Source of the DNA: Conexibacter sp. S30A1 | GTDB lineage: Bacteria; Actinomycetota; Thermoleophilia; Solirubrobacterales; Solirubrobacteraceae | NCBI RefSeq assembly: GCF_023330665.1 | Contig: NZ_CP097127.1 | Coordinates: 2,914,001 to 2,978,000 of the forward strand | Direction of reading: 5' to 3' | Length of the DNA: 64,000 bases | Part shown: one piece after another, positions 27,573 to 44,193 of the stretch | Layout of the letters: the number at the start of each line of letters is the position of its first letter | Numbering within the stretch: the first letter of the stretch is position 1 | Notes under the pieces: model-generated | What the model saw: only the letters and a program-made list of their open reading frames with translations | Databases searched by the model: none | Told to the model about the DNA's origin: nothing | Program-made: the position numbers and the translations under genes

Positions 27573-27663
27573 GGTCTGATCCTTCCGGCTGTGGGTGCGC
27601 TCTTTTCGCCTGCGTTTCGCGATCTCCTAAAGGTCTCTTATGAAGCCGGTGAACGATAGACGT

Positions 27664-28737
27664 ATGAAGAAACGAGTGTTGGTCTCAATTATCCCGGCGC
27701 TCGCGTGTCTCGCGTTCGCCGCGCCTGCACTCGCCACGACAACCCAGGAGGGTGCCAGCGAGAATTGGGCAGGCTACGTGGTCACCCCGAATGATGCCAG
27801 CGGTTTCTCTGCCGTCTCTGGACAATGGCGCCAGCCGAGCGTGTCCTGCACGGCCAACTCGCAGCCCACCTACTCGGCGTACTGGGTCGGGCTTGGCGGT
27901 GGCGGCCAGCAGTCAACGGCGCTCGAGCAGATCGGCACCCAGGCCGATTGCAGCGCCGCCGGCCAGACTCGCTACTACGCCTGGTATGAGCTGGTTCCCT
28001 CGGCGCCCGTCAAGCTGTCTTTGGCGATTCAGCCCGGCAACAGCCTCTGGGCACGCACCGCCGTTCACGGCGACAGGGTGAGCCTCACGATCATCGACCA
28101 GACGACCCACCGCAGATGGCAGAAGACGCTGACGATGAAAACGACGACGCCCGACACCGGCACCGCCGAGTGGATCACCGAGGCGCCATCGCACTGCGCT
28201 GGCGGCAACCTCGAAAACTGTACGCCGCTGCCGCTGGCCAACTTCGCCAAGGCCACCTTCGGCGACGCCCACGCCACGGCGGCCGGCCATACCGGCACGA
28301 TCACTGACTCGCGCTGGACGGCTGAGGCGGTCGAGCTGGCGCCCTCCGCCGGCACCTTCTTCGGTGGTGGCCCGGGCGGCTACTTCCAGGGCGGCTTCGG
28401 CGGCGGCCAGTTCAGCAGCTTCAGCACCAGCGCAAGTGCCGCGCCCACGTCGCTGACCAAAAACGGCACCGCCTTCACCGTCAGGTACGGGGCCACGCTC
28501 AGCCTGCCATCCTCGGGCGGCTCGGGCTACGGCGAGGGTAACCCCTACGGCTACGGCGGTGGCTACTACGGCGGCGGTTTCGGTGGCTACGGCGGCTACT
28601 ACGGCGGCGGTTTCGGTGGCTACGGCGGCTACTACGGCGGCGGTTTCGGTGGCTACGGTGGCTACGGTGGCTACGGCGGCGGTGGTTACGGAGGCGGGGG
28701 CGGCCTGGCGGCCCTCCTCAACAGCCTCGGTTTCTGA
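27664..28737 (+). CDS. Secreted G1 (eqolisin-like) acid peptidase with Gly/Tyr-rich repeat tail
   Basis: The 357-residue secreted protein has a signal peptide (about 1-24, ending PALA) and an eqolisin-type domain at about 30-225: ENWAGYVV, AYWVGLGG, EQIGTQADC with catalytic Q89, YYAWYELVP, and AEWITEAP with catalytic E169. The last about 130 residues are low complexity, with a GGYYGGGFGGYG motif repeated in tandem, probably for wall or self-association. ATG at 27664 is preferred over ATG 27640 because the signal peptide begins there. Together with the S53 peptidase it suggests extracellular proteolysis in acid surroundings. Confidence 0.85.
   Translation: MKKRVLVSIIPALACLAFAAPALATTTQEGASENWAGYVVTPNDASGFSAVSGQWRQPSVSCTANSQPTYSAYWVGLGGGGQQSTALEQIGTQADCSAAGQTRYYAWYELVPSAPVKLSLAIQPGNSLWARTAVHGDRVSLTIIDQTTHRRWQKTLTMKTTTPDTGTAEWITEAPSHCAGGNLENCTPLPLANFAKATFGDAHATAAGHTGTITDSRWTAEAVELAPSAGTFFGGGPGGYFQGGFGGGQFSSFSTSASAAPTSLTKNGTAFTVRYGATLSLPSSGGSGYGEGNPYGYGGGYYGGGFGGYGGYYGGGFGGYGGYYGGGFGGYGGYGGYGGGGYGGGGGLAALLNSLGF
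28561..28659 (+). repeat. Three perfect or near-perfect 33-bp tandem repeats inside the G1 peptidase tail
   Basis: Three consecutive 33-bp units (28561-28593, 28594-28626, 28627-28659) differ only in the last base of the third. They encode the 11-residue unit GYYGGGFGGYG. Such identity at DNA level suggests recent expansion and likely copy-number variation between strains. Confidence 0.9.
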
Positions 28738-28806: not shown

Positions 28807-31449
<2,643 letters not shown>

Positions 31450-31483
31450 CGGCGTCACTTGTCGTTGATTGTGGCTCGGTTGC

Positions 31484-32578
31484 TCAGGTTGCGGCAAACG
31501 GCTCAAGCCCGGAGAGTCGCAGCGTTGGCTTCAGCTCGGGGACCGGCCGCGGCGGGATCCCGGCGACCGCCTGGGCGATGGCGCGGATGTGCTCCGGCGT
31601 GGTGCCGCAGCAGCCACCGACGATGTTGACGAGCCCCGCCTGTGCCCATTCGCGCAGCTGAGTGCTCATCGCCTCCGGGCCCTGCTCGTACTCGCCCAGC
31701 TCGTTGGGCAGGCCGGCGTTGGGGTAGGCGGCGATCAGGGTGTCGGCGGCCGCCGCCAGCTGGGCCAGGAAGGGCCGCAGCTGCTCGGCGCCGAAGCCGC
31801 AGTTGAGGCCGACCGCGAAGGGCTCGGCGTGGCGCACCGAGATCCAGAAGGCGTCGATCGTCTGGCCCGAGAGCGTGCGGCCGGAGCGGTCGGTGATCGT
31901 GCCGGAGATCCAGATCGGCAGCTCGACGTGGCCCTCGTCACGCAGGTCGAGGATCGCCTTGAGCGCCGCCTTGGCGTTCAGCGTGTCGAAGATCGTCTCC
32001 ACCAGGAAGAGGTCGACACCGCCCTCGTAGAGGCCGACCACCTGCTCGCGGTAGGCGTCGTAGACCTGGTCGAAGTCGACGGCGCGCGCGCCGGGGTCGT
32101 TGACGTCGGCCGACATCGACAGGGTTCGGTTGGTCGGGCCGATCGAGCCCGCCACCCAGCGCGGTTTTGCGGGGTCGCGGGCCGTGACGGCGTCGGCTGC
32201 GCTACGCGCGAGCGTGGCGGCGGCGAGGTTCAGCTCCTTGGCCAGGTGGCCCGTGCCGTAGTCGGCCTGAGCGATCGTGGTTGAGCTGAACGTGTTGGTC
32301 GAGACGATGTCCGCGCCTGCCTCCAGGTAGTCACCGATCAGCGCGGCGATCAGCGCCGGGCGGGTGAGGCAGAGGATGTCGTTGTTGCCCTTGAGCGGTT
32401 GCGGGTGCTCTGCCAGGCGCTCGCCGCGGAACTCCTCCTCGGTCAGCTGGTGCTTTTGGATCTGCGCCCCCCAGGCGCCGTCGAGCACCAGGATGCGCTC
32501 GGTGGCGGCCTGCTCAAGCGCGGCGATCCGGGCTTCGCGCGCGTGCGTGGAAGCGCTGGTGGGCGGCTCGGTCGTCAT
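31484..32578 (-). CDS. metH: Homocysteine S-methyltransferase domain of methionine synthase as separate protein
   Basis: The 364-residue protein corresponds to the N-terminal (betaine-homocysteine methyltransferase-like) domain of MetH. It has [10 protein letters not shown] at about residue 33, the zinc cysteines in [11 protein letters not shown] and the final [10 protein letters not shown]. It ends with [11 protein letters not shown], which is precisely the segment that leads into the folate domain in single-chain MetH. The folate/B12 protein restarts 34 bases later in a different frame. It overlaps metF by 4 bases. It may be a genuine gene split or a recent or sequencing frameshift; the separate intact start argues for a real split. 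Confidence 0.9.
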
Positions 32579-33435
32579 GCTGCGCTCCGCGCCGGCGCCG
32601 CCCCGGCCCCGAGCAGGCGACAGACCGCCAGCGCGAGGTCGCTCTGGTTGAGCGTGTAGAAGTGGAACTCCTCAAACCCCTCATGTTGCAGACGCTCGAC
32701 CTGCGCGGCGGCGACGATCGCGCCCACCAGGCTGCGCGCGTGGGGCTCGTCTTCGAGGCCCGCAAAGCGCGCCTCCAACCACGGGGGCAGGGTCGCGCCG
32801 CAGCGGCCAGCCATCCGCGAGACGGCCTGGAAGTCGGTCGCCAAAAGGATCCCGGGGGCAAGCGTGAGCGGGATGTCGGCGGCGGCGATCCGGTCTCGCA
32901 GCCCGACGATCGCGGCGGTGTCGAAGCAGAACTGTGTGATCGCGCGAGTGGCGCCGGCCTGCGCCTTGGCGGCCAGCACGCGCAGGTCATGCAGGATCGA
33001 CTGCGACTCCGGGTGCGGCTCGGGGTAGGCGGCGACGCTGATCTCGAAGGGGTGGACGGCGCTGATGCCGGCGACCAGGTCGGTTGCGCTCTGGTAGCCG
33101 TCCGGATGGGCGGCGAAGCGCTCCTGGCCTGAGGGCGGGTCGCCGCGCAGCGCCACCACGTGGCGCACGCCCGCTTGCCAGTAGCGTTCGAGCTGCGCGT
33201 CTGTTTCTGTGCGGGAGCGCCCCACGCAGGTGATGTGGCCGGCCGCGGGCGGCCGCCCGGCTGCGTTGAGCCGCTCGAGCACACCGAGCGTCGCGTCGAT
33301 ACTGCCGCCGCCTGCGCCGCAGGTGACCGACACGAAGGCCGGCTCAAGCGGGCTCAGACGCTCGAGCGTCTGCCAGAGGTTGCGTTCGCCGGCCTCGGTG
33401 CGCGCCGGGAAGACCTCAAAGGAGATGCGGGTCAT
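32575..33435 (-). CDS. metF: 5,10-methylenetetrahydrofolate reductase
   Basis: The 286-residue MetF supplies 5-methyl-THF to methionine synthase. Visible landmarks are SFEVFPARTEAGERNL, FVSVTCGAGGG, HITCVGRS, VALRGDPPSG and ITQFCFDT, as in bacterial MetF flavoproteins. The ATG at 33435 overlaps the stop of the upstream regulator gene by one base (TGATG), and its own end overlaps the next gene by 4 bases. It is thus the second gene in a four-gene methionine operon. Confidence 0.94.
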   Translation of the reverse strand: MTRISFEVFPARTEAGERNLWQTLERLSPLEPAFVSVTCGAGGGSIDATLGVLERLNAAGRPPAAGHITCVGRSRTETDAQLERYWQAGVRHVVALRGDPPSGQERFAAHPDGYQSATDLVAGISAVHPFEISVAAYPEPHPESQSILHDLRVLAAKAQAGATRAITQFCFDTAAIVGLRDRIAAADIPLTLAPGILLATDFQAVSRMAGRCGATLPPWLEARFAGLEDEPHARSLVGAIVAAAQVERLQHEGFEEFHFYTLNQSDLALAVCRLLGAGAAPARSAA

Positions 33436-34439
33436 CAGCGGCCGGGCGCCTCCTGCGCCCGCAGCAGCCAGAGGTTTACGGTCAGGCACTCGCCGTCGCC
33501 ACCCGGTGGCAGCGCGCGTTCTGTCTCGAGCATGAGGCCCGCATCGGTCGCCCAACCCGAGAGCTCGGCCGTTGAGATGCCGAGCCGCCGGTGCCCGTGC
33601 AGCGACCGCAGCTCCTCCAGATCGTGGGCATCGAAATCGGCGACTAGCAGCCTGCCGCCCGGGCGCAGCAGCCGGGCGGCGTCAGCGAGCGCGCTGCCCG
33701 GCGCGTCGAGTGCGTGCAGCACGTGGTGCATCACGGCCACGTCAAAGCTGGCCGGCTCAAATGGCGGGCGGTGCAGGTCGCCGTGGCGCACGGTGGCGCC
33801 CGAGAGTTGCGCCTGGCTGAGCGTCGCGCGCGCCAGGGCCAGCATGTCGTGGTCGGAGTCAAGGCCGACGCTCTGATTGGTGTGGGGGGCGAGGAGCTCG
33901 AGGATCCTGCCGCTGCCCGTGCCGATGTCGAGCAGGCGGCCGATCGGGCCGGTGCTGGCGAGCATCTCGACCAGGGCCGCCTCGACGGCTTCCTCGCCGG
34001 CGTAGAGGCCGCGCAGCGCCTCGAGCTCCTCGGTGTGGGCGCTGCGCAGCGCACTGGCGGCCTGGGTGCGGGCCTGGCGGACGCGCGCGAGCGCGTCCAG
34101 GTCTCCGGCGATCGTCGCATCTGTGGGCGGGGCGAGCGTGGCGATCGCCTGAGCGACCTCAGCTTCGGCGCTGTCCTCGGCGAGGCGGTAGTAGACGTAG
34201 GCGCCCTCGGGCGCGCGCTCGAGGATGCCGGCATCGACCAGCAGCCGCAGGTGACGGCTCGTGCGCGGCTGGCTCTGGCCGATCACGCGGCTGATCTCGG
34301 TGACGGTCAGCTCCTCCTGCGCCAGCAGCGCGACCAGGCGCAGGCGCGTTGGCTCGGCGACAGCGCGCAGCGTGCTCACGAGCTGATCGAACTCGAGCCC
34401 GGAGGCGAGCTCGGGTTGGTCTTCAACGCTGAGCAGCAT
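33435..34439 (-). CDS. ArsR-type HTH fused to SAM-dependent methyltransferase; regulator of the metF-metH operon
   Basis: The 334-residue two-domain protein has an ArsR winged HTH at about residues 15-100 (EPTRLRLVALL, ISRVIGQSQPRTSRHLRLL). A class I methyltransferase fold follows from about 145, with SAM motif LLDIGTGSGRILELL and LRPGGRLLVADFDAHD. No metal-binding cysteine motif of ArsR is seen. Fusions of this type beside metF/metH are known for the SAH-sensing SahR group in Proteobacteria, recalled from the literature. The second domain may bind SAH or SAM as effector rather than catalyse methylation. It heads the operon and overlaps metF by one base. AT-rich dyads lie just upstream. Confidence 0.87.
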   Translation of the reverse strand: MLLSVEDQPELASGLEFDQLVSTLRAVAEPTRLRLVALLAQEELTVTEISRVIGQSQPRTSRHLRLLVDAGILERAPEGAYVYYRLAEDSAEAEVAQAIATLAPPTDATIAGDLDALARVRQARTQAASALRSAHTEELEALRGLYAGEEAVEAALVEMLASTGPIGRLLDIGTGSGRILELLAPHTNQSVGLDSDHDMLALARATLSQAQLSGATVRHGDLHRPPFEPASFDVAVMHHVLHALDAPGSALADAARLLRPGGRLLVADFDAHDLEELRSLHGHRRLGISTAELSGWATDAGLMLETERALPPGGDGECLTVNLWLLRAQEAPGR

Positions 34440-34469
34440 GGGGGCGGAAGCCTACCAGATTGGTGAGCG

Positions 34470-34491
34470 CATATAAAGATATGTGCATATG
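34470..34491. promoter_or_regulatory. Candidate operator for the ArsR-methyltransferase regulator
   Basis: The stretch contains the perfect dyad CATAT-AAAG-ATATG (34470-34483), followed after two bases by the palindrome CATATG (34486-34491). It is the only AT-rich segment in the 109-base gap between the regulator gene and the divergent YceH-like gene. ArsR-family repressors bind short AT-rich dyads of this sort. Confidence 0.55.
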
Positions 34492-34548
34492 ATGTTGCGA
34501 AGTGTTGGTTGTGGGTCTGGGTCGCGGTGATGCTTTACGCTCGCGAGG

Positions 34549-35262
34549 ATGCACCTGGACACGCTCACCGAACCCGAGCAGCGGGTGCTCGGCTGCCTGA
34601 TCGAGAAGCGCTTCACCACCCCCGACCAGTACCCGTTGACGCTGAACGCGCTGCGTCTGGCCTGCAACCAGGCGACCAACCGCGACCCGGTCGTGGCCTA
34701 CGACGAGGAGACCGTCAACGCTGCCGCCCAGCGGCTCACTCGCTACGGGCTGGTGCGCCTGGCCAGTGGCCACTCCAGCCGGGCGACCAAGTACCGCCAC
34801 CTGGCGGAGGAGGCGCTCGGACTGGGGCGGGAGGAGATCGCGCTGCTGGCGGTGCTGTTGCTGCGCGGGCCGCAGACGCCCGGCGAGCTGAAATCACGCA
34901 GCGACCGCCTCGTCGGCTTTGCGTCACTGGAGGCGCTGGAGGAGGTGTTGGCGCAGTTGGTCGCTCGCGGTTACGTACAGGCACTGCCGCGGCGACCGGG
35001 GCAGAAGGAGGAGCGCTACGTCCACACGCTCGGCTCAAGCACCGACTCGGTGGCGCTCCTGCCCGAGCGCGCGCCGACGCCGTCGGCTGCTGCGTCAGCG
35101 TCGGCGGCCGTCCCGTCGCTGGCGCCCCGCCCGCAGCCGAGCGCGGCGGCACCGAGCGCTACGCGAGAGCTTGAGGCACGGCTCGAGCGGCTGGAGGCGC
35201 GGGTCGCTCAGATCGCCGGTCTGCTCGAGGAGCTGACCGGAGAGCAGCTGACCGGCGCCTGA
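34549..35262 (+). CDS. YceH-like protein (DUF480/UPF0502)
   Basis: The 237-residue protein matches the DUF480 family: LTEPEQRVLGCLIEKRFTT, YPLTLNALRLACNQATNRDPV, SSRATKYRH, then a second winged-helix segment with LRGPQTPGELKSRS. A Ser/Ala/Pro-rich linker (about 170-200) leads to a C-terminal coiled coil (TRELEARLERLEARVAQ). The two tandem winged helices suggest nucleic-acid or protein binding. The biochemical role of the family is not established. Confidence 0.85.
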   Translation: MHLDTLTEPEQRVLGCLIEKRFTTPDQYPLTLNALRLACNQATNRDPVVAYDEETVNAAAQRLTRYGLVRLASGHSSRATKYRHLAEEALGLGREEIALLAVLLLRGPQTPGELKSRSDRLVGFASLEALEEVLAQLVARGYVQALPRRPGQKEERYVHTLGSSTDSVALLPERAPTPSAAASASAAVPSLAPRPQPSAAAPSATRELEARLERLEARVAQIAGLLEELTGEQLTGA

Positions 35263-39560: not shown

Positions 39561-41519
39561 TCACCCGCCGGTCGGCGTCCAGAGGTCGACGTCGCGTGCC
39601 TCACAGGCCTGCATGAACGCAATCAGCGCCCCCCACGAGTAGAACGGGTCGGAGTCGTGGGCCTCGTGGCCGTCAGGGTCGCGCGAGCTGTAGTTCTCGT
39701 GGCAGTGACGCCGATGCTCCCAGTCGTCTGCGAACATCCGCCACGCGCGCGCCGCCATCTCGCTGGCCACCTCCGCAAAGCCGCTGCGGCGCAGCCCCTC
39801 CCAGACGAACAGGAGCATCGGCGCCCAGATCCGCCCGCGCCAGTAGCTGTCATCCGCGTTCACCGGATCGTCAAACGGCGCCGAGGGCAGCGGCAGCGTC
39901 CCCCAGAACGAGGACTCGTTCAGGAGGTGTTCATGCACCAGCGCCTGCGCCTGCTCCGGCGTGGCGGCGCCGGCGACCAGCGGGAAGAAGCTCGTGGGCG
40001 AGATGTGGGCCGCAAAGCTCCCATCCCAGTCGCGCCCGGCGAACACCCGGCGCGCCGGGTCCCACAGCTGCGCTGAGATCAGCTGCGCGAGCTCGCGCGA
40101 GCGTCGCAGGTGAGCGTTCGCCTCCGTGTCGCGGCCAAGCGCGGCCGCGACACGGGCCAGCAGCTCCCACTCGAGCGCCAGCAGGCTGTTGTGGCCGGGC
40201 TCCTCGAACTCGAGCGTGCCGGTCCTGAGGTTGAAGCGGGCCTGGTCAAAGACCGCCAGGTTGTCCATCCCGGGCTCGTTCAGCGCCCCCTGCTTGGTGC
40301 TCACTCCCTGCGCGCGGCCGACCGGCGATGACCCGTACTCGTAGAGCCCGTTGCCGTTGCCGTCACGGTTGGCGCGGACCCATTCGAGCTGCCGGCAGAG
40401 CGCCGGGTAGAGCTCGGCCAGCAAGGTCCGGTCGCCGGTCTTTAGGTAGGTGCGCCAGACCGCGTAGCAGACGACCGGCAGCTGGCTGCGGTCAACCCAT
40501 TCGTCGTCGGCCGCCGTGAGGCTGGGCACGTTGCCCGCGGCCTGCTGTGCCGCGAGCACCGTCTGCAGGTTCGCCCGGGCCATGAACGTGTCCCCCACGT
40601 GCGCGCACATCAGCGCGTTGTAGTAGGTGTCGCTCATCCACACACCCCAGCCGCCAAAGCCCGCGACCCAGGCGCGTGAGGCGGTGGTGTAGGGGCGGGC
40701 GTTTGACTGGTCCCAGATCGTGTTCCAGGCCATCACGTCGCGCACGGCGCGCGCGGGCTCCGGCGGCTGGGTGGCCTCGCGCCGCGCGACCTCGATCAGC
40801 TCATCGACCGCCTGCAGGCGGGCGGCGGCAGCCGCGGCGGCGGGCTCGGGGTCTGCGTCCTGGGCGACCGCGAAGCGGACCACCTGGCGCGGGTCCCCGT
40901 AGAAGCGGAAGGCGAGCAGCTCCCCGGTGGTGGGCTCCTGCGGCCGGTACAGCCAGCCGCGGGTTTGCAGGTCGGCGGCGAGCGCGGCGCTGTCCGGGTA
41001 GGCGGCGGCCAGCGCGGGCGTCTCTGAGACGGCCACCGCAAACCACTGGCTGCGCCAGCGTCCGAGGCCCGCGGCCGGTGTGCGGTGATCACCTGCCCTG
41101 CGCTCAACGAGCGAGAGCTCGCGCGTGTGCCCGTCCACCATCAGGCGCCGGGTCTCAGCCGGGTTCGCCGTGAAGGGCGCGATGAAGCCCGCCTCGATGA
41201 TCACGTTCAGGCGAAAGAGCATCTCGCCGGGCTCGAGGATGCTCACGCGGCCACTGACACCGGACCAGGCTCCCTTGGCGAACTCGATCAGCAGACGGCT
41301 GCCGTGCACCCTGACCTCGAGCGACACGAAGTTGCTGTCGGAGCTGTGCTCGCCGAGCCTGAAGCGCTCGGAGGCGTCGTAGGCGAGCTCCTCGTAGCGG
41401 CCCGCGGTGGCGCTGAAGGCGGTGACGCGCACCGCAAAGCGGCTCGGGATGTGGATCATGCAGGCCGGGAAGCGCTCGTCCCAGGTGCCCCAGGCGCGGT
41501 CGGGTAGCAGCGTGCTCAT
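39561..41519 (-). CDS. Clan GH-G type glycoside hydrolase (GH63/GH37-like)
   Basis: The 652-residue cytosolic protein has an N-terminal beta-rich domain (about 1-250) and an (alpha/alpha)6 barrel. Barrel landmarks are MAWNTIWDQSNARPYTTASR, VWMSDTYYNALMCAHVGD, QGALNEPGMDN and DDSYWRGRIWAPM, as in alpha-glucosidase/trehalase-like GH63 members. No signal peptide is present, so imported oligosaccharides are the likely substrate. The neighbouring gene is a second large glycosidase on the same strand. The specific linkage cleaved cannot be deduced. Confidence 0.82.
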   Translation of the reverse strand: MSTLLPDRAWGTWDERFPACMIHIPSRFAVRVTAFSATAGRYEELAYDASERFRLGEHSSDSNFVSLEVRVHGSRLLIEFAKGAWSGVSGRVSILEPGEMLFRLNVIIEAGFIAPFTANPAETRRLMVDGHTRELSLVERRAGDHRTPAAGLGRWRSQWFAVAVSETPALAAAYPDSAALAADLQTRGWLYRPQEPTTGELLAFRFYGDPRQVVRFAVAQDADPEPAAAAAAARLQAVDELIEVARREATQPPEPARAVRDVMAWNTIWDQSNARPYTTASRAWVAGFGGWGVWMSDTYYNALMCAHVGDTFMARANLQTVLAAQQAAGNVPSLTAADDEWVDRSQLPVVCYAVWRTYLKTGDRTLLAELYPALCRQLEWVRANRDGNGNGLYEYGSSPVGRAQGVSTKQGALNEPGMDNLAVFDQARFNLRTGTLEFEEPGHNSLLALEWELLARVAAALGRDTEANAHLRRSRELAQLISAQLWDPARRVFAGRDWDGSFAAHISPTSFFPLVAGAATPEQAQALVHEHLLNESSFWGTLPLPSAPFDDPVNADDSYWRGRIWAPMLLFVWEGLRRSGFAEVASEMAARAWRMFADDWEHRRHCHENYSSRDPDGHEAHDSDPFYSWGALIAFMQACEARDVDLWTPTGG

Positions 41520-41661: not shown

Positions 41662-44193
41662 TCAGAGCCGCACGCTGGTGATCAGCGGCGCCGCCGCAAG
41701 CCCGGAGGGCTGCGGCTCGGACTGGAACGGGCTGCCCGCGTAATAGCGGTTGGCGGCGCTGTTACGGACCTCCACCTCGAGGAGGTTGCTGCTCGCCGCA
41801 AGCAGCCCGCCGGGTATGGGGAAGCGATACGGCTTGCGCAGCTTGGTTCCGAGGCCCTGACCGTTGAGGCGCACGCCGGCGGTGCAGTGCACGGCGGGCA
41901 GCGTCAGCTCGTGGCTGTATGCGGGGTCGTCCAGGTCGGGCCAGGCGATGTCAAAGACGCAGCGGTAGAGGCCGCTGCCGGCGAAGCTGGCAAAGCCCTG
42001 GCGCTCCCAGCCCGCCGAGGGGTCGACGGGCACGTCCTTGCGACCATCGGCGGTCAGCCGCCAGCCGTGCTCGAGCACGAGCGTGGGGCGGATCATCGCG
42101 GTGCGGACCTCGCCCGGTTCCAGTGTGAGCGACAGGGCTGCCTGGCTGTCACGCGCCTGCAGCGAGACCAGCCGAGGCGCGTCGGAGTCGTTGAGCAGCG
42201 CTACGCGCAGGCCGTGCTCATCGCGGCCCTGCCAGCTCCACAGCGTGCCGTCGCCGCTGGCGGTGACCGTGATGCCGTCGAGGCGGTGAAGGATCCCATC
42301 CGGCACGCTTGCCGGCACGCCGTGCTGAGGGGGTTCGGACAGGGTGCGTTCCAACCCCGCGGCCAGCGGCCCGCAGCCGAGCACCAGCCCGCCGGCTGTG
42401 GCGAAGCGCTCGAGCGCCGCCACGCAGTCTGGGTCTGGGAGCATCGTCACGCCCGCGAGGATGATCGCCGCGTAGCCGTGACGGCCGGTCTGCAGCACGG
42501 GCCCGGCGGCGGTCGTTGCCTGCGCCAGCGAGCGGTCGTCAACCAGGTCAAAGCCCACGCCCGCCTGGGCGAGCAGCGCCGCCCACTCGCCGATCAGCCG
42601 TGCGTGCGGGGCGTCCGGGCCATCGGCCCAGATCGTGTAAAGCGGGTAGACGATCGCCACCTCGCGCAGGGGCCGCGCGCCGGCGATGAAGCCAGCGACG
42701 GCCGCCAACTCGTCGGATACCTCGCGCAGCTGGTCAAACCACGGCTCGAAGTTGATCGCCGGCGGGAAGTCAAAGCGCGGGTTTGCGAGCAGCTCGCCGT
42801 TCCAGGGCTCGCCGTTGCTCTGGCTGACGGCGTGCATCAGAAACTGGCGCGCGCCGAGCAGCTCGAGCCGCAGCGCCGCCGTGCGCAGCTCATCGGCCGT
42901 CAGCTCCCAGTAGCCGGCGGCATAGTGGCCGCTCGTGCGCGAGGCGTACTGCTCCACGACGACGCCCTCGCGGCCGTGCGCGCGCGCCAGCGAAGCGCCG
43001 AAGCACGGAGAGATCTGCGCCTGGAAGTTGGCGGCGTCAACCAGCGTCTGGGTGCGGTGCGCATCGATCGCGAAGTGGTCGGAGCCGAAGTTGACGCGCG
43101 CATCCACCTCGGGAAAGCCGTCATTGAGACCCCAGCCGCCCACGAACGGCAGGTACTCGTGACCGGTGAGGCCGACCCCGTGCGCTTGGGCCCAGCGCGC
43201 AAGCGTGCCAAAGAAGCTCGTGATCCCGAGACTCGAATACGCGGCGAAGAACTCACAGCGCCGCCGCCGGCCGTTCTCGCCACGGTCGTGGACGACCTCC
43301 CACAGCAGCCGGCCAAGCCCGTCGGCCGCGAGCTGCTTGAGCCAGGCGGTGTCCTCAAGCCACATCAGGCTGTTGCCGATCAGGCCGTCGCGCCCATCCC
43401 AGTCGTAGAAGCCCGCGTACGGGTGGTCAAAGGCGAAGAAGCGCACAGGATCACCGAGCAGTCCTGCAAGCGCCTGGGCGTAGGGCTCGTAGACGACCTC
43501 CAGGAAGCGCTCGGCGGCGCGGGCGTCCAGGTAGTTGATCAGGCGCGAGCTGGCGGCCCTGGCGCTCACATACGCGGTCGCCAGCCAGCCTTTGGGCAGC
43601 GGCGCGTCGGGCGCCACACTGACCACGGCGCCGTCGTCGGCTGGCTGACAGACCGCCCAGGCGCTCAAATCGACCTGCTCGGCGCCGGCGTCGGGGGCGG
43701 TCGCGGCCTGCGGCGGGCGCCCGATCACGGCGACTACGTGCCACTCATCGAAGCGGCGCTCGCCACCCTCGTAGAGCCAGTCGCGCTCGGCTCCGCCGAG
43801 GCCGTCGATCCACTCCGAGCGGATCCGGCTGATGCGCGCGACCCGGGGGTCGGTGGCGCTGCTGGTCGCCCAGAAGAGGTGGCGCTCGCGCAGCTCCTCA
43901 GCACCGCGCACGGTGCGGCCGCCGCCGTGGCCGCTGATCCAGCAGTACTCGTCGTAGACGCCGACCGTCAGGCCGGCCTGTGCCGCCGACTGCACCGCTT
44001 CACGGTAGGCGTGCAGGTAGGGCTCGGACATGTAGAGCTCCAGCGGGAAGGCGCGGCGCGCCTGGATCATCACGGTCCCGAACCCGGCGGCCGCGAACTC
44101 TTCAAGCTGGCGTGCGGCCTCCAGCCGGCTGGGTATGTGGCTCCAGAACCAGTAGGCCGCCGGGCGGTGCTCGTGGAAGGGGTCGCTTGCCAC
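41662..44193 (-). CDS. Large glycoside hydrolase, GH106-like (alpha-L-rhamnosidase-related)
   Basis: The 843-residue protein has an N-terminal TIM-barrel start typical of GH106-related proteins: AYWFWSHIPS, then AAAGFGTVMIQARRAF and the active-site-like LTVGVYDEYCWISGHGGGR. A central domain has HEYLPFVGGWG and WADGPDAPHARLIGEW. A C-terminal galactose-binding-like beta domain ends with LPAVHCTAGVRLNGQGLG and NLLEVEVRNSAANRYY. No signal peptide is seen. It likely trims rhamnose or a similar sugar from plant or microbial glycans. It is the upstream member of a two-gene glycosidase cluster. Confidence 0.75.
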   Translation of the reverse strand: MASDPFHEHRPAAYWFWSHIPSRLEAARQLEEFAAAGFGTVMIQARRAFPLELYMSEPYLHAYREAVQSAAQAGLTVGVYDEYCWISGHGGGRTVRGAEELRERHLFWATSSATDPRVARISRIRSEWIDGLGGAERDWLYEGGERRFDEWHVVAVIGRPPQAATAPDAGAEQVDLSAWAVCQPADDGAVVSVAPDAPLPKGWLATAYVSARAASSRLINYLDARAAERFLEVVYEPYAQALAGLLGDPVRFFAFDHPYAGFYDWDGRDGLIGNSLMWLEDTAWLKQLAADGLGRLLWEVVHDRGENGRRRRCEFFAAYSSLGITSFFGTLARWAQAHGVGLTGHEYLPFVGGWGLNDGFPEVDARVNFGSDHFAIDAHRTQTLVDAANFQAQISPCFGASLARAHGREGVVVEQYASRTSGHYAAGYWELTADELRTAALRLELLGARQFLMHAVSQSNGEPWNGELLANPRFDFPPAINFEPWFDQLREVSDELAAVAGFIAGARPLREVAIVYPLYTIWADGPDAPHARLIGEWAALLAQAGVGFDLVDDRSLAQATTAAGPVLQTGRHGYAAIILAGVTMLPDPDCVAALERFATAGGLVLGCGPLAAGLERTLSEPPQHGVPASVPDGILHRLDGITVTASGDGTLWSWQGRDEHGLRVALLNDSDAPRLVSLQARDSQAALSLTLEPGEVRTAMIRPTLVLEHGWRLTADGRKDVPVDPSAGWERQGFASFAGSGLYRCVFDIAWPDLDDPAYSHELTLPAVHCTAGVRLNGQGLGTKLRKPYRFPIPGGLLAASSNLLEVEVRNSAANRYYAGSPFQSEPQPSGLAAAPLITSVRL

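What the first reader, a model, noticed from the sequence alone, without database searches (positions are those of the whole stretch)
33435..34491. ArsR-methyltransferase fusion as resident regulator of a metF-metH operon in an actinobacterium
An ArsR winged helix is joined to a complete SAM-binding methyltransferase fold and overlaps metF by one base. It heads an operon that makes methionine and hence SAM. Such fusions beside metF/metH are known in Proteobacteria as SAH-responsive SahR-type regulators (recalled from the literature). The methyltransferase-like domain may therefore have become the sensor for SAM or SAH. Upstream, the dyad CATAT-AAAG-ATATG and an adjacent CATATG are the only AT-rich elements in the gap.
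Basis: partly seen in the sequence, partly recalled or inferred. Interest (0 to 1): 0.72.

Follow-up and report, generated by a model that had tools for sequence, protein, structure and literature searches.

The report
SahR-controlled methionine operon in Solirubrobacterales
An actinobacterium appears to have replaced its own methionine genes with a foreign set that arrived with its own control switch, a protein that probably senses spent methyl donor, and with the DNA site the switch binds.

Summary
A 334-aa ArsR winged helix plus methyltransferase domain (33435-34439, minus) shares one base with metF and heads metF, metH-N and metH-C (metH is split). It is SahR, known from Proteobacteria: 11 alphaproteobacterial plasmid records match at 40-47% over 91-96% of its length, and two sphingomonad loci have the same four genes in the same order. 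The regulator is not general in the genus: 5 of 28 genomes have it, as one RpoB clade; the 20 other genomes with a MetH match have another MetH branch (33-38%). Descent with the congeners' enzymes is rejected for MetH and MetF; the donor is unresolved. A second actinobacterial family has SahR, operator and met genes in 17 of 121 genomes. Best reading: a laterally acquired, self-regulated methionine operon that replaced native genes. SAH as ligand is inferred.

The parts
33435..34439 (-). sahR: ArsR-family winged helix (res. 30-74) fused to class I SAM-dependent methyltransferase domain (res. 168-271)
   Evidence: Pfam; 40-47% to 11 alphaproteobacterial plasmid records over 91-96% of its length; alignment
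34470..34491 (.).
   Evidence: 19/22 to alphaproteobacterial consensus, 0 of 2000 shuffles; 19 of 22 columns invariant in 5 genomes versus 3 of 123 outside
32575..33435 (-). metF, methylenetetrahydrofolate reductase; shares 1 base with sahR
   Evidence: PF02219 1.6e-71
31484..32578 (-). metH-N, homocysteine-binding module of split methionine synthase; overlaps metF by 4 bases
   Evidence: PF02574 4e-97; best NCBIfam matches are the N-terminal parts of MetH models
28807..31449 (-). metH-C, pterin-, cobalamin-binding and activation modules of split methionine synthase
   Evidence: PF00809, PF02607, PF02310, PF02965; stop between the two parts in 6 of 6 own-clade loci checked
34549..35262 (+). 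divergent DUF480 gene; neighbour only, not assigned to the system
   Evidence: PF04337 9e-56; also beside sahR in G105, G173, G148

Best explanation
This is a SahR-type autoregulated methionine-cycle operon, sahR-metF-metH(N)-metH(C), acquired by lateral transfer into one clade of a Solirubrobacterales genus, where it replaced the native metF and one-chain metH. A SahR dimer binds the 22-bp operator that spans 31-52 bp upstream of its own start codon and represses the whole operon. When S-adenosylhomocysteine (SAH) rises relative to SAM it occupies the methyltransferase-fold pocket, SahR leaves the DNA, and MetF and MetH regenerate methionine from homocysteine. Shown here: architecture, gene order, operator and its conservation, phylogenetic discordance, restriction to one clade of the genus. 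Inferred from SahR work in Proteobacteria: dimer, repression, autoregulation, SAH as ligand. Inferred from the trees and gene counts: transfer and replacement.
For: 40-47% identity over 91-96% of the length to 11 alphaproteobacterial records. Gene order sahR-metF-metH(N)-metH(C) identical in Sphingomonas and Novosphingobium. Recognition-helix segment GQSQPR(T/I/V)SRH kept in 16 of 17 SahR-type rows; L009 differs at its first residue. Operator in 5 of 5 closest genomes and at 17 of 17 SahR loci of a second actinobacterial family. One site per genome in 5 genomes at up to 2 mismatches, reversed control 0. MetH-C 56-63% to proteobacterial, Deinococcus and f33 MetH over near-full alignments but 31-35% to 12 congeners. 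Own clade + congeners rejected for MetH p 1.8e-51 and MetF p 6.0e-4. SahR carriers form one clade by RpoB, 89/87, in a sample of 19 of 28 genus genomes.
Against: No binding or ligand data for this protein. ahcY, a core SahR target in Proteobacteria, shows no operator in the 400 bases before the Pfam match in five genomes. The more distant orthologue L013 has only a weak site (14/22; 10 of 1000 shuffles reach it). A grouping of own clade + congeners + Streptomyces on one side is not rejected (MetH p 0.06; MetF p 0.19), and the single-gene trees place the own clade differently (sphingomonads for SahR, f33 for MetF), so the donor is unresolved and an old separate actinobacterial lineage is not strictly excluded. 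G+C and GC3 of the operon match the genome, so any transfer is old.
Confidence: 0.85

Rival explanations
1. It is an ArsR-M protein: an arsenite-methylating enzyme and regulator linking arsenic and methionine metabolism, as claimed for Brevundimonas sp. M20.
For: The Brevundimonas protein heads a four-gene operon of the same content (metRFHH), its SAM motif is written DLGTGSG, and it was reported to bind its own promoter (CTTTATATAAAG) and to methylate As(III).
Against: Cysteines are not conserved: the window protein and L009 have one (C318), the four other orthologues have none or one elsewhere, f33 rows have one to three, and 6 of 7 alphaproteobacterial rows have none. The ArsR metal-site region reads ELTVTEI, without cysteines (the CxC expectation is recalled). 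No arsenic gene among the 13 window proteins I scanned. The Brevundimonas protein itself was not aligned here.
Confidence: 0.04
2. SahR-like regulator whose ligand is SAM (as proposed for SamR) rather than SAH, acting as a SAM-loaded co-repressor.
For: The regulon seems limited to methionine synthesis; ahcY lacks the operator, the kind of argument by which SamR was proposed to respond to SAM (PMC4239095 section 8).
Against: Closest relatives found and the operator are of the SahR type (40-47%; SamR is described as about 30% identical to SahR, with a 24-bp motif). metK was not checked.
Confidence: 0.2
3. Working methyltransferase with a winged-helix dimerisation domain and no DNA-binding role.
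For: Intact SAM motifs; a weak PF08100 O-methyltransferase dimerisation match, below its cut-off; a weak PDB match spanning both domains, AlpH, 2e-4.
Against: Conserved recognition helix, and a well-scoring operator upstream of 22 of the 23 actinobacterial SahR-type genes scored, L013 being the weak one. An ArsR-methyltransferase relative without operator and without met genes in the stretch read (L105) has a different recognition helix.
Confidence: 0.03
4. Vertically inherited ancient SahR operon that most of the genus lost.
For: A second actinobacterial family also has the system; the tree holding own clade + congeners + Streptomyces together is not rejected.
Against: The congeners' MetH and MetF (12 and 14 rows) each make one clade that excludes the SahR clade; both enzyme types would have had to coexist and sort. 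Outside the genus only a 37% relative was found in a class sample of 399 genomes, genus members included (five candidates scored per genome); L013 (62%, genus not determined) comes from another collection.
Confidence: 0.12

Closest known systems
SahR of Alphaproteobacteria (Desulfovibrio SahR is the founding member)
   Same: ArsR-HTH plus methyltransferase fold, 40-47% identity, recognition helix, operator sequence, position before metF or metF/metH
   Different: Host is an actinobacterium; left half-site of the operator diverged (TATGCAC instead of TATAAAG); no operator found before ahcY
ArsR-M of Brevundimonas sp. M20, metRFHH operon (PMC10190100)
   Same: Same gene content and order as described there; reported binding sequence CTTTATATAAAG resembles the SahR site
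   Different: Arsenite methylation and the cysteine proposed for it find no support in conservation here
SamR of Xanthomonadales (PMC4239095)
   Same: SahR-like regulator beside metH
   Different: Described as about 30% identical to SahR, with a 24-bp motif and further regulon genes
McbR of Corynebacterium
   Same: SAH-responsive repressor of methionine genes in an actinobacterium (PMC4239095 introduction)
   Different: TetR type by that paper, a different protein family

Membership tests
SahR | ArsR-family HTH fused to SAM-binding methyltransferase fold | tested here: met
SahR | Full-length sequence kinship to SahR | tested here: met
   40-47% over 91-96% of the query to 11 alphaproteobacterial plasmid records; two Leptospira records match at 26%. 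The SahR name for the alphaproteobacterial proteins rests on protein, operator and metF context; Desulfovibrio SahR itself was not available to compare.
SahR | About 20-bp palindromic operator upstream of itself | tested here: met
   19/22 to alpha consensus, 0 of 2000 shuffles; conserved in 5 genomes
SahR | Regulon core of sahR, metF, metH, ahcY, metK | tested here: inconclusive
   sahR, metF and metH met; no site found before ahcY in five genomes; metK not examined; one site per genome
SahR | DNA binding responsive to SAH | not testable with these tools
   Needs EMSA or ITC
ArsR-M / arsenite methyltransferase | Conserved As(III)-binding cysteines | tested here: not met
   Cysteines absent or not conserved across 17 SahR-type rows
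SamR | 24-bp palindrome, ATC-10 nt-GAT, Xanthomonadales regulon | tested here: inconclusive
   The site found here is a 22-bp element of the alphaproteobacterial SahR type; no SamR sequence was compared

The most novel reading that the evidence does not exclude
A complete self-regulated metabolic module (sensor, operator and enzymes) crossed between phyla and displaced the native, scattered methionine-synthase pathway in an actinobacterial clade. The operator was kept nearly letter for letter while the rest of the promoter region diverged, so the foreign regulator runs as a closed loop that controls only its own operon.
Probability: 0.65. Interest if true: 0.55.

Novelty: new member of a known kind. 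Interest (0 to 1): 0.42.

Why it matters
SahR has been described in Proteobacteria; no title or shown abstract in my listings reports it in Actinomycetota. Two actinobacterial lineages now appear to carry it with its operator. Related genomes with and without the module make a natural test of whether bringing one's own regulator and operator helps a transferred pathway replace a native one. It also suggests that the 'metalloregulator ArsR/SmtB' label on annotated relatives is misleading for this family.

Tried and rejected
Riboswitch: none at Rfam gathering scores in the window, none at E up to 1 in 34400-34600, none in 20 congener metF/metH loci. A sigma-70 promoter scan found nothing in 34400-34600; I suspect that the -35 region lies in the operator and that the transcript is nearly leaderless, but this is by eye only. 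The AlphaFold model from six sequences was poor (mean pLDDT 62.8, residues 174-215 under 50), so no fold search was run. ahcY as a second target was not supported. The other ArsR-methyltransferase in the class (G346, L105, 37%) has no operator and no met gene in the stretch read and is not counted as SahR. Partial matches in G178 and a second one in G173 were not counted as orthologues. In the trees I used 12 of 20 congeners for MetH and 14 of 21 for MetF, dropped the interrupted MetH-C of L013, and in the joined MetH tree also the truncated Novosphingobium THN1 row. Paper searches for transfer of the operon returned nothing to the point in what was listed (20 of 379 listed, none).

Full report
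What is there. The ORF at 33435-34439 (minus) encodes 334 residues: ArsR HTH (30-74) and a class I methyltransferase domain (168-271). Its stop shares one base with the metF start. metF (32575-33435) overlaps metH-N (31484-32578) by four bases, and metH-C follows after 34 bases if its ATG at 31449 is the start (end 28807). Methionine synthase is therefore split into a homocysteine-binding protein and a pterin/cobalamin/activation protein. In 6 of 6 own-clade loci checked there is a stop between the two parts, as in two sphingomonads and Ruegeria; in four f33 loci, two Methylobacterium, Rhizobium, Deinococcus and two congeners the two parts are read through in one frame (19 loci in all). Split MetH in Sphingomonas koreensis is in print (PMC7857596, passages).

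What family it is. tblastn against plasmids gives 152 records, 30 listed; 13 match over at least 80% of the query. Eleven of these are alphaproteobacterial, 40-47% identical over 91-96% (Methylobacterium, Rhizobium, Sinorhizobium, Shinella, Sphingomonas, Novosphingobium); the other two are Leptospira at 26%. In the four fetched loci that carry annotation the next gene is metF; in Sphingomonas and Novosphingobium ES2-1 the order is regulator, metF, homocysteine methyltransferase, metH, as in the window. tblastn shows that order also in both Methylobacterium records and in Novosphingobium THN1, while the Rhizobium, Sinorhizobium and Shinella loci show sahR-metF only. SahR is described as an SAH-responsive ArsR-family regulator with a 20-bp palindrome and a core regulon sahR, ahcY, metH, metH2, metF, metK (PMC4239095: abstract, passages, section 8). 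The founding paper (Novichkov et al., recalled) is not held, so I know its content only through citing papers and recall.

The operator. Alphaproteobacterial sahR genes are preceded by sites such as CACATAAAGATATCTTTATATC. I wrote a 22-letter consensus from these and scored other loci with it. Eight of eight alphaproteobacterial loci score 17-21, but they gave the consensus. Independent tests: the window gap scores 19 (0 of 2000 dinucleotide shuffles; maximum 16); four own-clade orthologues score 17-18 (0 of 1000 each); the 62%-identical L013 scores only 14 (10 of 1000); four loci of the second family score 16-17 (0 of 1000 each); the other fusion, L105, scores 9 (932 of 1000). In five own-clade upstream regions 19 of 22 operator columns are invariant against 3 of 123 other columns; L013 was left out of that count. 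A pattern of the core with up to two mismatches finds one site in each of the five genomes and no match to the reversed control. The 400 bases before the ahcY match in the five genomes and in G063 score at shuffle level.

Distribution. In the genus, 5 of 28 genomes hold a full-length orthologue at 71-100%; a sixth has only a partial match. In the order, 5 of 201 at E up to 1e-40, the same five. In the class, 6 of 399 at E up to 1e-22, the sixth being L105. In the phylum, 5 of 396: the window genome and four of one unnamed family, f33. Searches scored only the best 10, 5 and 5 candidates per genome. A genome-contig scan gave five loci: four on contigs of the same lengths as those of the four other carriers, and L013, 62% identical, from a record titled Solirubrobacterales. 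In f33, 17 of 121 genomes have it, and 17 of 17 loci have the operator (at most 1 of 500 mononucleotide shuffles) and at least one met gene within the fetched flanks. Two of the four f33 loci read further show no metF in the stretch (L102, L103).

Native or acquired. MetH-C matches at E up to 1e-30 occur in 25 of 28 genus genomes: five at 85-100% identity (the SahR carriers) and twenty at 33-38%, sixteen of these in an open frame of at least 1,100 codons. metF matches occur in 26 of 28: five at 66-100%, twenty-one at 36-46%. In G063, a single contig, metH and metF lie at 3.108 and 0.240 Mb; in the other nineteen congeners with both they are on different contigs, which does not prove that they are unlinked. 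One match for each enzyme was found in the window's genome. Trees place MetH of the SahR clade with proteobacterial, f33 and Deinococcus rows, and MetF with alphaproteobacterial and f33 rows (no other Proteobacteria were in the MetF tree), and the congeners with Streptomyces; the dividing branches have 99-100% support. Holding own clade and congeners together, without Streptomyces, is rejected: MetH p 1.8e-51, MetF p 6.0e-4. Holding own clade, congeners and Streptomyces on one side is not rejected: MetH p 0.06, MetF p 0.19. So common descent with the congeners' enzymes is excluded under the model, but where the operon joins the other side, and who gave it, is not resolved. SahR (midpoint root) groups the own clade with sphingomonads (85/82), MetF with f33 (87/90), joined MetH beside f33 plus rhizobial and roseobacterial rows (86/92). 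RpoB puts the five carriers in one clade (89/87) inside the genus, midpoint-rooted, in a sample of 19 of 28 genomes. Within the carriers the joined MetH tree agrees with RpoB on the pair G000+G105 and on G084 as their neighbour. The neighbour DUF480 is shared by G105, G173 and G148; the G084 contig ends too early to tell, and L013 and the four f33 loci searched show none. G+C and GC3 are those of the genome, so the event is not recent.

How it probably works. SahR binds its operator and represses its own operon; SAH binding in the methyltransferase pocket relieves this; MetF and the two MetH parts remethylate homocysteine. Motif I (LDIGTGSGR), the acidic D194 and D221 are present, so a SAM or SAH ligand is plausible and catalysis is not excluded. 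Ligand, repression and autoregulation are inferred from Proteobacteria (PMC8877191 passages).

The arsenic alternative. Brevundimonas ArsR-M heads the same kind of operon and was reported to bind CTTTATATAAAG and to methylate arsenite (PMC10190100: passages, sections 13 and 16). Cysteines are not conserved across 17 SahR-type rows. I think that protein is a SahR, but I did not have its sequence.

Print status. Searches for SahR or SAH-responsive ArsR regulators (4 papers, 20 of 260 listed, most of them plainly unrelated by title, 9 papers, 7 papers) list no paper whose title or shown abstract reports SahR in Actinomycetota. Only open-licence papers are held, and I read listings, not every paper.

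Noticed in passing
28807-32578: Methionine synthase is split into two genes in the SahR clade, as in two sphingomonads, while the two congeners checked have one chain.
   Followed up: yes
27640-28737: Peptidase A4 family protein with a long Gly/Tyr-rich repetitive tail, convergent with metH-C; matches also lie downstream of metH-C in G105 and G084.
   Followed up: no
L013:7485-7904: MetH-C of the more distant orthologue is interrupted by apparent frame changes and a gap, perhaps assembly errors.
   Followed up: no
L105:4359-5180 (G346): A different ArsR-methyltransferase fusion, 36-37% identical, without operator or met genes in the stretch read; function unknown.
   Followed up: partly
41662-44193: 843-aa ORF with no Pfam match at 0.001, next to an MGH1-like glycoside hydrolase (39561-41519); a PfkB kinase and a cytosine/purine permease lie beyond.
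   Followed up: no
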